From Pedobacter glucosidilyticus DSM 23534 (GTDB lineage Bacteria; Bacteroidota; Bacteroidia; Sphingobacteriales; Sphingobacteriaceae), in contig NZ_AULF01000031.1 in assembly GCF_000425145.1 (NCBI RefSeq), positions 1-52,111 of the forward strand: DNA of 52,111 nt, written 5' to 3'. Shown here in pieces: positions 28,801 to 37,721 of this stretch (position 1 is its first letter; each line of letters opens with the position of its first letter). A program made the translations under genes and the position numbers. The notes under the pieces are model-generated. The model saw only the letters and a program-made list of their open reading frames with translations, was not told the origin of the DNA and searched no databases.

Positions 28801-29691
28801 TTACTTGGATGTTAATCTAAATATTATAGGCATAGTATATCTAAACCTCACTTTCTTGTTAAAATTTTCTCCTGGAATCCATTTAGGCATTAAGTTTATC
28901 AACCTTAGTGATTCATTTCCTAAATTTTTTGATTTATCAGGAACTCTTAGGATTCTAGGATTATTAATAGTCCCATCTTTTTCAACTATAAAATCAACTA
29001 TAACCCTACCTTCAATTTTTTGATTTTTTTCCCATTTTGGGTATACTAAGTTTGCTTCAATAAATTCATAAAGTTTATCAATTCCACCTCTATACATAGG
29101 TAAAATAGCAATATTAGTATGAATAAAATTAGTATCTAAATTGTTGTAGTTTTGAGAAATAACCTCATCAAAAGGCATATTTACAGATGTTTTAATAGTC
29201 GGACTTATTTGCAAACCTCCTTTTGTTGATTTTATTCCTTTATCTAAGTCTGCTTGATAATTGGTATTTGATTTATCTTTTTTTATTTTATTGGTTTCAG
29301 TTTTACAGTGTAAAGAATCTTCTTTTTCTTTTATTAAGGGTTGTTTATCTAATAAGACTGATTTAGGTATAGAGTTAGTATTATTGCAACTTATAAAAGA
29401 AAGTGTAGCTACTAATAACAAATAAAAGCCATAATTGGTCTTTTTGTTTTTCATTAGTTCCTTGTCTATTACAGCAATAATCTCTTCATGAGAAAAGTTC
29501 ATTATGCCATTCTTTACTCTACCACAAACATCTTTATCTTTATTTTGAAGAATAAAACGAATAATTGAATTGTTATCCATTTCTGCAAAATTCATTACGT
29601 TTTTTGAGCAAAAGTTACAATATCGGGCATTATCATTAATAATCATTTCGTCCCAATTCACAGTACAAGGGCTTATAATCTCAATCTTCAT
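28801..29691 (-). CDS. Membrane protein with N-terminal Cys motif and TonB C-terminal domain
   Basis: 296 residues. Residues 1-70 hold a motif seen at the front of many Bacteroidetes membrane proteins: CTVNWDEM, YCNFCSKNV and VCGRV, with four or five cysteines that may bind metal. One membrane span at about 86-101 (GFYLLLVATLSFIS) is followed by a charged linker rich in Lys and Asn. A TonB C-terminal domain follows (about 215-296: EGRVIVDFIVEKDGTI, then MPKWIPGENFNKKVRFRYTMPI). It probably passes energy to an outer-membrane transporter or is a TonB-like structural protein. No ExbB/D or receptor is adjacent. Confidence 0.8.
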   Translation of the reverse strand: MKIEIISPCTVNWDEMIINDNARYCNFCSKNVMNFAEMDNNSIIRFILQNKDKDVCGRVKNGIMNFSHEEIIAVIDKELMKNKKTNYGFYLLLVATLSFISCNNTNSIPKSVLLDKQPLIKEKEDSLHCKTETNKIKKDKSNTNYQADLDKGIKSTKGGLQISPTIKTSVNMPFDEVISQNYNNLDTNFIHTNIAILPMYRGGIDKLYEFIEANLVYPKWEKNQKIEGRVIVDFIVEKDGTINNPRILRVPDKSKNLGNESLRLINLMPKWIPGENFNKKVRFRYTMPIIFRLTSK

Positions 29692-33347: not shown

Positions 33348-33653
33348 ATGAGCCAAAGAATTAGAATTAAATTAAAATCTTACGATTACAATTTGGTAGA
33401 TAAATCTGCTGAGAAAATCGTTAAAACTGTTAAACCTACTGGTGCAGTAGTTAGTGGTCCAATTCCTCTTCCAACCGAGAAGAAAATTTACACAGTATTA
33501 CGTTCTCCACACGTTAACAAAAAAGCAAGAGAGCAGTTTCAATTATGCTCTTACAAAAGATTACTTGACATCTATAGTGCTTCTGCAAAAACTGTAGATG
33601 CTTTAATGAAACTTGAATTACCATCAGGTGTTGAAGTAGAAATTAAAGTCTGA
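33348..33653 (+). CDS. rpsJ: 30S ribosomal protein S10
   Basis: 101 residues. The signature [31 protein letters not shown] is split only by expected substitutions. S10 is a 30S head protein and also the NusE antitermination factor. In most bacteria it starts the S10 operon directly before rplC. Here it ends the str operon, with a strong terminator 24 bp downstream. Confidence 0.98.
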
Positions 33654-33772: not shown

Positions 33773-34819
33773 ATGATTTCAAAAATAAAAACAGCTAGAA
33801 TTAAGAAGGGGCTAAAGGTTAGAGAGCTTGCACAATTACTTATGGTTGATTCTTCATTGGTCAGTAAATTTGAATCGGGAGTTAGAAAGCCTAGTAGAGA
33901 TCAAATTATACAAATTGCGCAAATATTAAACATAGATGCACATGAATTATTAATAGATTGGTTAAGCGAGCAAGTTGTTGAGCAAGTAGGTTATGGTAAT
34001 TTTGCTCTAGAAGTTCTTTCTGTTGCTGAAGAAAAGATTAAGTATTATAAGAAAAGCGAACTGCTAATTATTAATAAGGTAAATGATGTTTTAGCAGAGA
34101 TAGATAAGTTAAAGGAAAAGTTAACACAGCATAGAGCTTTAGATAGTTTCAAGATTATAGAGGCTCTAGAGTTAGAATACACTTTTGAAAGCAATAGGAT
34201 AGAAGGGAATACGCTCACACTTAAAGAAACAGACTTAGTAATTAATGAGGGTATTACCATCTCTGGTAAAAGTATGAGAGAGCACTTAGAAGCTATAAAC
34301 CATAAAGAGGCCTTAGATTTTTTAAAAGAATTAATAAGAAAGGATGCTGATTTTTCTGAGAGAGATTTATTATTGTTGCATGCCCTTATCCTTAAAGGGA
34401 TAGATTCTAAATATGCAGGTATTTATAGAGATGTACAAGTTATGATTAGCGGTAGCAGGCATTTACCTCCACAGCCATATTTGGTAAAAAAGCAAATGGA
34501 GGATTTGTTTTTTTGGTATCAGGCCTATAAAAAGGATTTACATCCGGTGGTTTTAGCTGCAGAACTTTCTGAAAGATTAGTTACTATTCATCCTTTTTTA
34601 GATGGAAATGGTAGAACATCTAGGCTTATCATGAATCTTATTTTATTAAAAAATGGTTATGTAATTGCAAATATTAAGGGCGATGCCGAAAACCGTATGA
34701 AATATTATGAAGCCTTAGAAAATGCTCAAGTGGATAATCAAAAAGAAGGTTTTTATCTTTTTGTAGCCCAGGTGGAGTTAGAGGCTTTGAAAAGATATTG
34801 CTCAATTTTAGGGATTTAA
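33773..34819 (+). CDS. Fic protein with N-terminal XRE DNA-binding domain
   Basis: 348 residues. An XRE helix-turn-helix occupies residues 1-62 (IKKGLKVRELAQLLMVDSSLVSKFE). A helical linker leads to the Fic domain with the active motif H273-PFLDGNGR281. The inhibitory motif S140-NRI-E144-G145 lies N-terminal to it, which marks a class II, self-inhibited Fic enzyme. Such enzymes usually transfer AMP from ATP to target proteins. The XRE domain and the repeats at its start suggest autoregulation. It lies between rpsJ and a TYR1-like gene that begins 29 bp after its stop, so the two may share a transcript. Confidence 0.9.
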   Translation: MISKIKTARIKKGLKVRELAQLLMVDSSLVSKFESGVRKPSRDQIIQIAQILNIDAHELLIDWLSEQVVEQVGYGNFALEVLSVAEEKIKYYKKSELLIINKVNDVLAEIDKLKEKLTQHRALDSFKIIEALELEYTFESNRIEGNTLTLKETDLVINEGITISGKSMREHLEAINHKEALDFLKELIRKDADFSERDLLLLHALILKGIDSKYAGIYRDVQVMISGSRHLPPQPYLVKKQMEDLFFWYQAYKKDLHPVVLAAELSERLVTIHPFLDGNGRTSRLIMNLILLKNGYVIANIKGDAENRMKYYEALENAQVDNQKEGFYLFVAQVELEALKRYCSILGI

Positions 34820-34848: not shown

Positions 34849-36111
34849 ATGAATATAGGATTAATAGGTCTAGGAGATATGGGTAAGCTGTATGCAAAGA
34901 AATTTGCAGCAGCAGGGCTTTCTGTTTTTGGATGTGATTTGCCTGATCGTACGCTAGAACTTCAAGAAGAATTAGGTCCTTTAGGTATCATAATTCTGAA
35001 TAATGGTTTGGAAGTATCTGCAAAATGCGATTTTATTTTTTACGCTGTAGAAGCAGAGAAGATTAAAGAAGTTGTAGCTGCTTGTGCTTTTTCTACAAAA
35101 AAGGGAGCTATGGTAACAGGCATGACATCGGTTAAAACTCCAGAAGTAGAAGCATTTGAGCGTTATTTATCAAAAGATATAGAATTAATCTTAACCCATT
35201 CTTTGCATGGTCCAGGTTTTAGTACTAAAGGTCAAAAGTTAATTGTTGCGCCACATCGGATATCTGCTGCATCTTATGCTAAGGCTATGCAAGTTTTACA
35301 ACTTCTAGAATCTGAAATTATTGAGCTTAATGATTATCATCAGCATGATCAAATCATGGCAGATACACAAGCGGTAACGCACATGGGTTTTGAAAGTATG
35401 GGTACTGCTTGGAAAAATGCAGGAACTTATCCTTGGGAGAGTGGTGCTTATGTTTCTGGGATAGATAATGTTAAGATTCTTACAACTTTAAGAATTTTTA
35501 GTTACAAAGCACATATTTATGCCGGTTTGGCTATTCTAAATCCTTATGCAACGGCTCAGATTATTGCTTACGCTCAGTCAGAATCCATTTTATTTAAAAT
35601 GATGATTCAAGAGGATGAAGCTAATTTTAGAGAAAGAATTTATAAAGCAAGGGATTTTGTTTTTCATGAACAAACCAATCTTATTTTGTTTGATGACGAT
35701 ATTATGCAAGAATTTAGCATAGGCGATAATCAGGAGTTAGCTAAGCATAATTCTCATCTTAGCTTACTTGCTATGGTTGATGCGTGGCACCAATTAGGCA
35801 TCAATCCTTATGATAACATGATATGCCAAACGCCTCCTTTTAAACTCAGATTAGGAATTGTAGAGTACCTCTTTAAGAATGAAGATTTATTAGAAGATAC
35901 TATTCAAACTGCTTTATACGATAAAAGTATTAGAGGAGATGATTTAGAGTTTCATACAGCAGTAAGAGAGTGGGCTTCTATTATCAGATATAAAGATATG
36001 GAGGGTTACAAAACTCATTTTAAAGAAGCAAAGGATTTTTTTGAACCTCTGCTAGAAAAAGGGCGTGTTCAAAGTGCTGAATTAATTAAACGTTTATCAA
36101 CGCCTAAATAA
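34849..36111 (+). CDS. Prephenate dehydrogenase, fungal TYR1-like
   Basis: 420 residues from MNIGLIGLGDMGKLY; the ATG at 34798 overlaps the fic gene and is rejected. A Rossmann domain has GLGDMG at 7-12. HSLHGP at 117-122 corresponds to the catalytic histidine region of TyrA enzymes. DTQAVTH at 172-178, NSHLSLLAMVDAWHQLGINP at 301-320 and DDLEF with REW near 365-375 follow. From memory, yeast Tyr1 has the same blocks in the same order (GLGDMGLLYA, HSLHGP, ADTQAVTH, NSHLSLLAIVDSW, DPYDHMIC). It would make 4-hydroxyphenylpyruvate from prephenate for tyrosine synthesis. The ordinary short bacterial TyrA looks different. It is likely co-transcribed with fic and overlaps the convergent next gene by 15 bp. 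Confidence 0.85.
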   Translation: MNIGLIGLGDMGKLYAKKFAAAGLSVFGCDLPDRTLELQEELGPLGIIILNNGLEVSAKCDFIFYAVEAEKIKEVVAACAFSTKKGAMVTGMTSVKTPEVEAFERYLSKDIELILTHSLHGPGFSTKGQKLIVAPHRISAASYAKAMQVLQLLESEIIELNDYHQHDQIMADTQAVTHMGFESMGTAWKNAGTYPWESGAYVSGIDNVKILTTLRIFSYKAHIYAGLAILNPYATAQIIAYAQSESILFKMMIQEDEANFRERIYKARDFVFHEQTNLILFDDDIMQEFSIGDNQELAKHNSHLSLLAMVDAWHQLGINPYDNMICQTPPFKLRLGIVEYLFKNEDLLEDTIQTALYDKSIRGDDLEFHTAVREWASIIRYKDMEGYKTHFKEAKDFFEPLLEKGRVQSAELIKRLSTPK

Positions 36112-36687
36112 TTCGTCTAATTTGTTTCTTTCATCTTGTAGAGCCCTGGCAAGTTTTTTCTCATTGTCATTAGCTTTTATTTTATAATTCTTAAACTCGT
36201 CATTTAAATCGTTGAAAAGTTTTATCCTGTAAAGAGCTTCTTTTCTAAAGCTTTTGGTCCTAAATATTAAGAAAGTAGCTAAACCGAGCAAAAAAATAAT
36301 TAGACCCCACATGGTAGTTTGATAGGCAGCTTTAGAAAGCGGAACAAAACTTAAGAGTAATATTTCATCTTTGGCATTTAAAGCTTTAGATAAGAGATTG
36401 TTTTTTTCTGATAAAAGCTTTTTAAGTTGGTTAATTTCTAATTGTTGTGTATTAATTTGACTTTGAGCTTTATCTAATTTAGCTTGATTACTCTTTAAAG
36501 AATCAGTTGTGTTTTTCCAGAGACTTTTTATCTGATTCTGGTTAATCACCTTATATTCCTGATAATTATTGGCTTTTTCCACAATATTTTCATATTGAGC
36601 ATTTAAGCTTGTTTGTGCTTTAGAAAAATTTATTATTCCAGCAAATATTAGTATTATGCCGGTAAACAGATAGCATTTATTTTTCAT
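36097..36687 (-). CDS. Membrane-anchored coiled-coil protein of unknown function
   Basis: 196 residues. A signal peptide (MKNKCYLFTGIILIFAGIINFSKAQT) precedes a periplasmic coiled coil (about 55-105, many Gln, Asn, Leu), one membrane span at about 122-145 (MWGLIIFLLGLATFLIF) and a cytoplasmic coiled coil ending in RNKLDELFRR. The topology resembles envelope-spanning adapters. I recall Bacteroidetes homologues carrying misleading methyltransferase names; there is no methyltransferase motif here. It is convergent with, and overlaps, the TYR1-like gene by 15 bp. Confidence 0.75.
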   Translation of the reverse strand: MKNKCYLFTGIILIFAGIINFSKAQTSLNAQYENIVEKANNYQEYKVINQNQIKSLWKNTTDSLKSNQAKLDKAQSQINTQQLEINQLKKLLSEKNNLLSKALNAKDEILLLSFVPLSKAAYQTTMWGLIIFLLGLATFLIFRTKSFRKEALYRIKLFNDLNDEFKNYKIKANDNEKKLARALQDERNKLDELFRR

Positions 36688-37103: not shown

Positions 37104-37721
37104 ATGTCAGGAATTATTGGAAAAAAAGTAGGAATGACCAGCATTTTCGACGCAGAGGGTAAAAACATACCTTGTACTGTTATCGAAGCTGGACCTTGTG
37201 TGGTAACACAAGTTAGAACCGTCGAGAAAGATGGCTATGCTGCTGTTCAGTTAGCTTACGACGAGAAGAAAGAAAAAAACACCACTGCTTCATTAAAAGG
37301 TCATTTTGAGAAAGCTGGAACTACACCTAAGCGTAAGCTTGTTGAGTTTAAGTATTTTACAGAAGAAAAATCTTTAGGTGATGTTGTTGATGTTAATCTT
37401 TTCTTAGAAGGTGATTACGTAGATGTAGTTGGTACTTCTAAAGGTAAAGGTTTTCAAGGTGTTGTAAAACGCCATGGTTTTAGTGGTGTGGGTATGCAAA
37501 CTCACGGACAGCACAACCGTTTAAGAGCTCCAGGTTCATTAGGTGCATCTTCATTTCCTTCAAGAGTATTTAAAGGAATGAGAATGGCCGGAAGAACAGG
37601 TGGTTCTAGGGTGAAAATTCAAAACCTTCAAATCGTTAAAGTTTTTGCTGAGCAAAATTTATTAGTTGTTAGTGGTTCTATACCAGGAGCAAAGGGTTCG
37701 TACGTATTAATCGAGAAGTAA
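37104..37721 (+). CDS. rplC: 50S ribosomal protein L3
   Basis: 205 residues. A two-domain L3 with the extended loop [20 protein letters not shown] that reaches toward the peptidyl transferase centre and carries the glutamine methylated by PrmB in other bacteria. Normal length. It is the first gene after the promoter at 37027 and is followed by rplD with a 1-bp gap. Confidence 0.98.

What the first reader, a model, noticed from the sequence alone, without database searches (positions are those of the whole stretch)
34849..36111. Fungal TYR1-type prephenate dehydrogenase encoded in a bacterial ribosomal locus
The 420-residue protein shares with yeast Tyr1, as I remember that sequence, long colinear blocks: GLGDMG-x-LYA, HSLHGP, ADTQAVTH, NSHLSLLAMVDAW (yeast NSHLSLLAIVDSW), INPYDNMIC (yeast IDPYDHMIC) and DDLEF with REW. 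The common bacterial TyrA is shorter and lacks these blocks. This suggests transfer between bacteria and fungi, or a bacterial root of the fungal enzyme. Its likely co-transcription with a Fic gene is odd.
Basis: partly seen in the sequence, partly recalled or inferred. Interest (0 to 1): 0.8.

Follow-up and report, generated by a model that had tools for sequence, protein, structure and literature searches.

The report
Fungal-type tyrosine enzyme in soil bacteria
A group of soil bacteria (Pedobacter, Mucilaginibacter and kin) appears to make tyrosine with an enzyme that resembles the one in yeast instead of the usual bacterial enzyme, probably after an ancient gene transfer across kingdoms.

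Summary
The ORF is real: 420 aa, intact, at 34849-36111, between rpsJ and rplC. It is a TyrA-superfamily dehydrogenase but not ordinary bacterial TyrA. The catalytic Ser/His and the His-Asp pair align with known enzymes and are invariant in 24 of 24 aligned rows.

The window's genome has no other PDH_N match and no phenylalanine hydroxylase match, but has chorismate mutase and prephenate dehydratase. Of 301 family genomes, 174 have this gene, 99 have canonical tyrA, none both, 28 neither. The aminotransferase paired with canonical tyrA was found in 6 of 7 canonical and 0 of 14 TYR1-type genomes.

Best reading: a eukaryotic, probably fungal, prephenate dehydrogenase was acquired, displaced native aminotransferase-tyrA, and was itself replaced in some lineages. 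Donor, direction and activity are inferred; no database copy of a fungal sequence was available. The Fic neighbour is incidental (6 of 80 loci).

The parts
34849..36111 (+). TYR1-type prephenate dehydrogenase gene, 420 aa
   Evidence: Intact ORF; TyrA-superfamily matches; 46% to recalled yeast Tyr1
34867..34884 (+). Codons 7-12, GLGDMG nucleotide-binding loop
   Evidence: Block at residue 7; invariant residues G7, G9, G12 in 24 rows; the role is general knowledge
35128..35130 (+). Codon 94, Ser opposite catalytic Ser101 of soybean PDH1
   Evidence: Alignment; role of Ser101 from PMC5681985, Discussion
35197..35199 (+). Codon 117, His opposite catalytic E. coli His197 and soybean His124
   Evidence: role from PMC2954222, passages
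35344..35349 (+). Codons 166-167, His-Asp opposite E. coli His245-Asp246
   Evidence: hydrogen-bond network in the H. influenzae enzyme, PMC2954222 passages
35380..35382 (+). Codon 178, His opposite E. coli His257 (tyrosine inhibition)
   Evidence: role from PMC2954222 passages
35656..36108 (+). Codons 270-420, C-terminal third shared with recalled yeast Tyr1
   Evidence: 46% to yeast over these residues; no Pfam match up to E 10 for codons 269-420
33348..33653 (+). rpsJ, left border of the interval
   Evidence: ORF; homologue left of the gene in relatives; name is general knowledge
37104..37721 (+). rplC, right border of the interval
   Evidence: ORF; conserved in relatives; name is general knowledge
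36097..36687 (-). 196-aa ORF, recurrent neighbour; overlaps the last 15 bases of the gene
   Evidence: homologue in 57 of 80 named loci
33773..34819 (+). HTH-Fic gene; neighbour in this species, not part of the conserved unit
   Evidence: Pfam Fic and HTH_3; in 6 of 80 named loci

Best explanation
The gene encodes a prephenate dehydrogenase of the fungal TYR1 type that serves as the cell's tyrosine-branch dehydrogenase. It oxidatively decarboxylates prephenate to 4-hydroxyphenylpyruvate with NAD(P)+, with His117 and Ser94 acting at the ring hydroxyl; another aminotransferase then makes tyrosine. An ancestor of part of the Sphingobacteriaceae (Pedobacter, Mucilaginibacter and kin) acquired it from a TYR1-bearing eukaryote, most likely a fungus. 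It settled between rpsJ and rplC, and the native aminotransferase-tyrA pair was lost. At least two lineages later carry an aminotransferase-tyrA pair again, outside the native TyrA clade, and lack the TYR1-type gene. Shown by computation: gene, superfamily, active-site residues, mutual exclusion, synteny. Inferred: activity, substrate, cofactor, donor, direction, number of gains.
For: Profile match to soybean prephenate dehydrogenase E 1.2e-13 over residues 1-254. Catalytic residues align and are invariant in 24 of 24 rows. Recalled yeast Tyr1: 46% over 423 aa, clade support 100/100. One PDH_N match in the genome, this gene; no phenylalanine hydroxylase match; chorismate mutase and prephenate dehydratase present. 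301 family genomes: 174 TYR1-type, 99 canonical, 0 both. Paired aminotransferase in 6 of 7 canonical and 0 of 14 TYR1-type genomes. G573, G663, G687: no TYR1-type gene, rpsJ next to the 196-aa ORF, and an aminotransferase-tyrA pair elsewhere. Native TyrA clade of ten family members (100/99).
Against: The only fungal sequence is recalled, and whether yeast lies outside the bacterial set is unresolved (44/58). No activity data. PDH_N score barely over its cut-off and below it in some relatives. The residue opposite soybean 222 is Phe217 or, one step off, Ile216, not the Gln/Asn usual in clade II. Song et al. doubt the old yeast assignment and their model predicts arogenate for it. 28 of 301 genomes have neither gene, so tyrosine auxotrophy or another route occurs. 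Phenylalanine hydroxylase matches occur in 7 of 15 TYR1-type genomes tested. One search's cut-off recovered 9 of 14 control genomes, so divergent TyrA may be missed. The foreign origin of the later tyrA pairs has only moderate support (92/85 and 94/90).
Confidence: 0.72

Rival explanations
1. Bacteria-to-fungi direction: the TYR1-type enzyme arose in bacteria and an ancestor of fungi took it from them.
For: Yeast is not resolved outside the bacterial set (44/58). The gene is old enough within the family to follow broad lineages.
Against: Strong matches in 9 of 395 Bacteroidota genomes, all of this family; the family has a native TyrA clade; bacterial members are at least 59% identical to each other against 44-49% to yeast, so they look younger than the split from yeast.
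Confidence: 0.1
2. Third-party origin: fungi and these bacteria each got the gene from an unsampled prokaryote or another eukaryote.
For: Only one eukaryotic sequence could be compared. Of 258 relatives found in the GTDB scan only 80 were shown, so other phyla are not excluded.
Against: The 80 best are titled Pedobacter, Mucilaginibacter, Pelobium, Pseudopedobacter, Daejeonella or unnamed Bacteroidetes/Sphingobacteriales bins. No relative in viral contigs by two pattern scans or phages, and one 25% partial match in plasmids.
Confidence: 0.15
3. An arogenate dehydrogenase of the same family: tyrosine is made through arogenate and not 4-hydroxyphenylpyruvate.
For: Song et al. 2005 report that their model puts yeast TyrA with the arogenate type and question the old assay (PMC1173090, passages).
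Against: Non-acidic residue at the specificity position in either register; Schenck et al. 2017 list fungi among enzymes preferring prephenate (PMC5681985, Discussion).
Confidence: 0.2
4. A dehydrogenase of other function (3-hydroxyisobutyrate or 6-phosphogluconate type) that merely shares a Rossmann domain.
For: Pfam's best match is NAD_binding_2 (E 7e-9).
Against: The best solved match is a prephenate dehydrogenase reaching residue 254; catalytic residues align; no genome of 301 has both this gene and canonical tyrA.
Confidence: 0.03

Closest known systems
Saccharomyces cerevisiae Tyr1 (prephenate dehydrogenase; sequence recalled)
   Same: 46% identity over 423 aa, even along the length, including the C-terminal third
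   Different: In a bacterium; lacks the short N-terminal extension and C-terminal tail of the recalled sequence; Leu31 where yeast has Arg44 next to the conserved Asp, so cofactor preference may differ
Soybean PDH1 (5t9e) and H. influenzae TyrA (2pv7)
   Same: Closest solved prephenate dehydrogenases by profile, E 1.2e-13 and 2.5e-5; catalytic Ser and His align
   Different: Soybean match ends at residue 254 and H. influenzae at 279 of 420; the rest has no counterpart there
Canonical Bacteroidota TyrA (PDH_N plus PDH_C), with its paired aminotransferase
   Same: Same superfamily and presumably same pathway step; never in the same genome in 301
   Different: About 280 aa, PDH_N and PDH_C at about 1e-28 and 1e-25, no significant BLASTP match to this protein
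PRK08655-type prephenate dehydrogenases (NCBIfam)
   Same: Best NCBIfam matches of both this protein and recalled yeast Tyr1
   Different: Best score 83.6 bits against a cut-off of 464

Membership tests
TyrA superfamily | Nucleotide-binding domain recognised as PDH_N | tested here: met
   27.4 bits, cut-off 26.5; E up to 0.01 in 24 of 24 members
TyrA superfamily | Catalytic Ser and His and the His-Asp pair | tested here: met
   S94, H117, H166, D167 align and are invariant in 24 rows
TyrA superfamily | PDH_C dimerization domain | tested here: inconclusive
   14.5 bits, under its cut-off of 22; E up to 0.01 in 5 of 24 members
Fungal TYR1 family | Full-length sequence kinship with fungal Tyr1 | tested here: inconclusive
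   46% over 423 aa and clade support 100/100, but the fungal sequence was recalled
Fungal TYR1 family | C-terminal third present | tested here: inconclusive
   46% to recalled yeast over residues 270-420; same recalled reference
Fungal TYR1 family | Prephenate dehydrogenase activity with NADP+ (EC 1.3.1.13, recalled) | not testable with these tools
   Needs an enzyme assay
Canonical bacterial TyrA | Groups with canonical TyrA in a tree | tested here: not met
   Canonical rows form their own clade (100/100) apart from this set

The most novel reading that the evidence does not exclude
A fungus-to-bacterium transfer displaced a core amino-acid biosynthesis gene and its partner aminotransferase across much of a bacterial family, became fixed inside the ribosomal-protein region, and was later reversed in some lineages by foreign bacterial aminotransferase-tyrA pairs, probably changing the route from prephenate to tyrosine each time.
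Probability: 0.55. Interest if true: 0.75.

Novelty: new member of a known kind. Interest (0 to 1): 0.62.

Why it matters
Gene flow from eukaryotes into bacteria is reported far less often than the reverse (general knowledge), so the displacement of a core biosynthetic gene in 174 of 301 genomes of a family would be a strong case. The mutual exclusion with tyrA, the lost aminotransferase and the lineages that carry tyrA again make it a natural experiment on whether tyrosine-branch dehydrogenases are interchangeable. It also bears on annotation: the only PDH_N match in this genome is barely over the cut-off and some relatives score below it, so pathway tools may report a false gap (inference).

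Tried and rejected
Fic as a functional partner: rejected (6 of 80 loci). Fungal contamination of the assembly: rejected; the gene is flanked by bacterial ribosomal genes and recurs in 174 of 301 genomes. A hidden normal tyrA in this genome: no match at E 0.001 other than this gene. In the other TYR1-type genomes, second PDH_N matches occur in nine or ten, all below the curated cut-off. Tyrosine through phenylalanine hydroxylase: no match in G000 or in the other five TYR1-type genomes of its genus that were tested, but matches in 14 of 25 genomes searched (7 of 15 TYR1-type, 7 of 10 canonical), so elsewhere it may be a second route. Viral or plasmid carriage: searches found no relative, one 25% partial match. 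Bacteroidota promoter pattern: 5 in the window, 5.09 expected; one lies just upstream of the Fic gene, which is no evidence by itself. Sigma-70-like sites: 17, with 16.7 expected. In the first superfamily tree two rows picked by weak BLAST, BAC_L146 and BAC_L147, had very long branches (5.1 and 7.5) and were dropped. Literature: searches listed no title or abstract start describing a fungal-type prephenate dehydrogenase in Bacteroidota; the library lacks most subscription journals, and the review asked for is not held.

Full report
What is there. Window 34849-36111 (+) is one intact ORF of 420 codons. It lies between rpsJ (33348-33653) and rplC (37104-37721), with an HTH-Fic gene just upstream and a convergent 196-aa ORF overlapping its end. 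The window is contig C25 of a 4.02 Mb genome rated 99.9% complete. Genome G010, whose copy is 99.8% identical, has it on a contig of 125412 bases, the length of a record titled Pedobacter glucosidilyticus. So the organism is probably that species or a near relative, and family code f1 is taken to be Sphingobacteriaceae (inference from lengths and titles).

What family. Pfam gives NAD_binding_2, F420_oxidored and PDH_N, the last just over its cut-off. NCBIfam's best are prephenate dehydrogenase models, at 83.6 bits against a cut-off of 464 for the first. A profile of 24 rows finds soybean prephenate dehydrogenase as the best solved structure, E 1.2e-13 over residues 1-254. Profile comparison with five canonical-type TyrA rows and E. 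coli TyrA (probability 98.8, residues 1-180) puts His117 on E. coli His197, His166-Asp167 on His245-Asp246 and His178 on His257. The soybean alignment puts Ser94 on Ser101 and His117 on His124. These are residues that the literature names for catalysis, a His-His-Asp network and tyrosine inhibition (PMC2954222, passages; PMC5681985, Discussion). All five are invariant in the 24 rows. The C-terminal third has no Pfam match up to E 10.

Kinship with yeast Tyr1. Over 45 bacterial members identity to it runs from 44 to 49%, highest to a Pedobacter relative and not to the window's copy, as expected of a separate sequence rather than a distorted memory of the window protein. In a tree of 27 rows the bacterial set plus yeast has support 100/100, apart from canonical TyrA (100/100) and E. 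coli TyrA; yeast outside the bacterial set has only 44/58, and the program warned of long branches meeting elsewhere in the tree. Two rows were dropped before that tree. The best proteins from other families that BLASTP listed are 23-30% identical over part of the length.

The only candidate in this genome. With PDH_N at E 0.001 the genome has one match, this gene. It has no match to phenylalanine hydroxylase, an alternative tyrosine route reported for Echinicola of the same phylum (PMC7311316, passages). It has genes for chorismate synthase, EPSP synthase, a DAHP synthase-chorismate mutase fusion and prephenate dehydratase side by side.

Mutual exclusion. Of the same 301 family genomes, 174 carry the TYR1-type gene (E 1e-50 or better) and 99 a canonical PDH_N match (E 1e-15 or better); none carries both and 28 carry neither. 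The hypergeometric figure for zero overlap (3e-54) treats genomes as independent and overstates the case. At one search's cut-off 9 of 14 control genomes were recovered, so some divergent TyrA could be missed. At the looser cut-off second matches in TYR1-type genomes were all below the curated score.

The partner aminotransferase goes too. Canonical tyrA of the family mostly follows a class I aminotransferase gene; an aminotransferase-tyrA association is described for Bacteroides and Cytophaga (PMC1173090, passages). At E 1e-60 this aminotransferase was found in 6 of 7 canonical and 0 of 14 TYR1-type genomes. The exception, G021, has a tyrA without it.

Where it sits. Of 80 named loci, 29 hold both rpsJ and rplC, and in all 29 the gene lies between them, in 28 on the rpsJ strand; 12 have rpsJ upstream only, 13 rplC downstream only, 1 has it outside, and 25 show neither border (12 of these are short stretches; the other 13 may have longer intervals or a moved gene). 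The interval is 2.4-11.5 kb. The Fic gene is in 6 of 80 and the 196-aa ORF in 57 of 80. In L054 and L055 rpsJ and the TYR1-type gene are about 130 bp apart without Fic. In the window 29 bases separate Fic and this gene, so they may share a transcript here (inference). A terminator-like hairpin follows rpsJ, but one such site is no more than expected by chance (1.9).

History. On a tree of seven ribosomal proteins for 49 genomes, midpoint-rooted and with open deep forks, the TYR1-type label needs 6 changes, 3 of them forced by well supported branches (shuffled mean 15.9), so a single uninterrupted gain does not fit. Of 19 canonical TyrA proteins of the family, ten form a clade (100/99) that includes lineages from both sides of the drawn root: I take these as native. 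Seven others, from two groups nested among TYR1-type genomes (G004, G006, G015, G016; G573, G663, G687), fall outside it together with a protein of another family of the class (94/90, and 92/85 for the pairing of that protein with the second group), which suggests but does not prove foreign origin. G021 and G025 are divergent. G573, G663 and G687 still have rpsJ next to the 196-aa ORF, no TYR1-type gene or remnant detectable by tblastn in the fetched 9.5-9.9 kb, and an aminotransferase-tyrA pair. My account: native aminotransferase-tyrA, gain of the TYR1-type gene with loss of the pair, then at least two reversals. More than one gain is not excluded.

Range. Among 395 Bacteroidota genomes 9 had strong matches (E below 1e-200), all in this family; the other matches were E 3e-18 or weaker. 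In the scan of named GTDB genomes 258 stretches encoded a relative; the 80 shown were titled Pedobacter, Mucilaginibacter, Pelobium, Pseudopedobacter, Daejeonella or unnamed Bacteroidetes/Sphingobacteriales bins. The other 178 were not seen.

Reading. I commit to a prephenate dehydrogenase that replaced native TyrA after transfer from a TYR1-bearing eukaryote, probably a fungus. Prephenate is favoured over arogenate by a non-acidic residue opposite soybean position 222 (Phe217, or Ile216 one step off), by the report that fungi prefer prephenate, and weakly by loss of the aminotransferase. Against this, Song et al. 2005 question the old yeast assignment and their model predicts arogenate (PMC1173090, passages), and the residue is not the Gln or Asn usual in clade II. 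The cofactor is open.

Noticed in passing
33773-34819 (+): A 348-aa protein with an N-terminal HTH_3 domain and a C-terminal Fic domain; the sequence shows HPFLDGNGR, a Fic active-site motif as I recall it.
   Followed up: partly
Relatives: interval between rpsJ and rplC in 29 named loci: The interval runs from 2.4 to 11.5 kb, so this break in the ribosomal-protein cluster seems to gather other genes.
   Followed up: partly
36097-36687 (-): A 196-aa ORF without a Pfam match over its cut-off has homologues in 57 of 80 named loci beside the TYR1-type gene and stays in three genomes that lack that gene. Function unknown.
   Followed up: partly
L183, L185, L186, L187, L188: In several canonical-tyrA relatives no rpsJ match lies within the roughly 8 kb fetched upstream of rplC, so the cluster is broken there too; G024 and G027 keep the two genes close.
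   Followed up: no
28801-29691 (-): A TonB C-terminal domain protein lies upstream of the rpsL-rpsG-fusA-rpsJ cluster.
   Followed up: no
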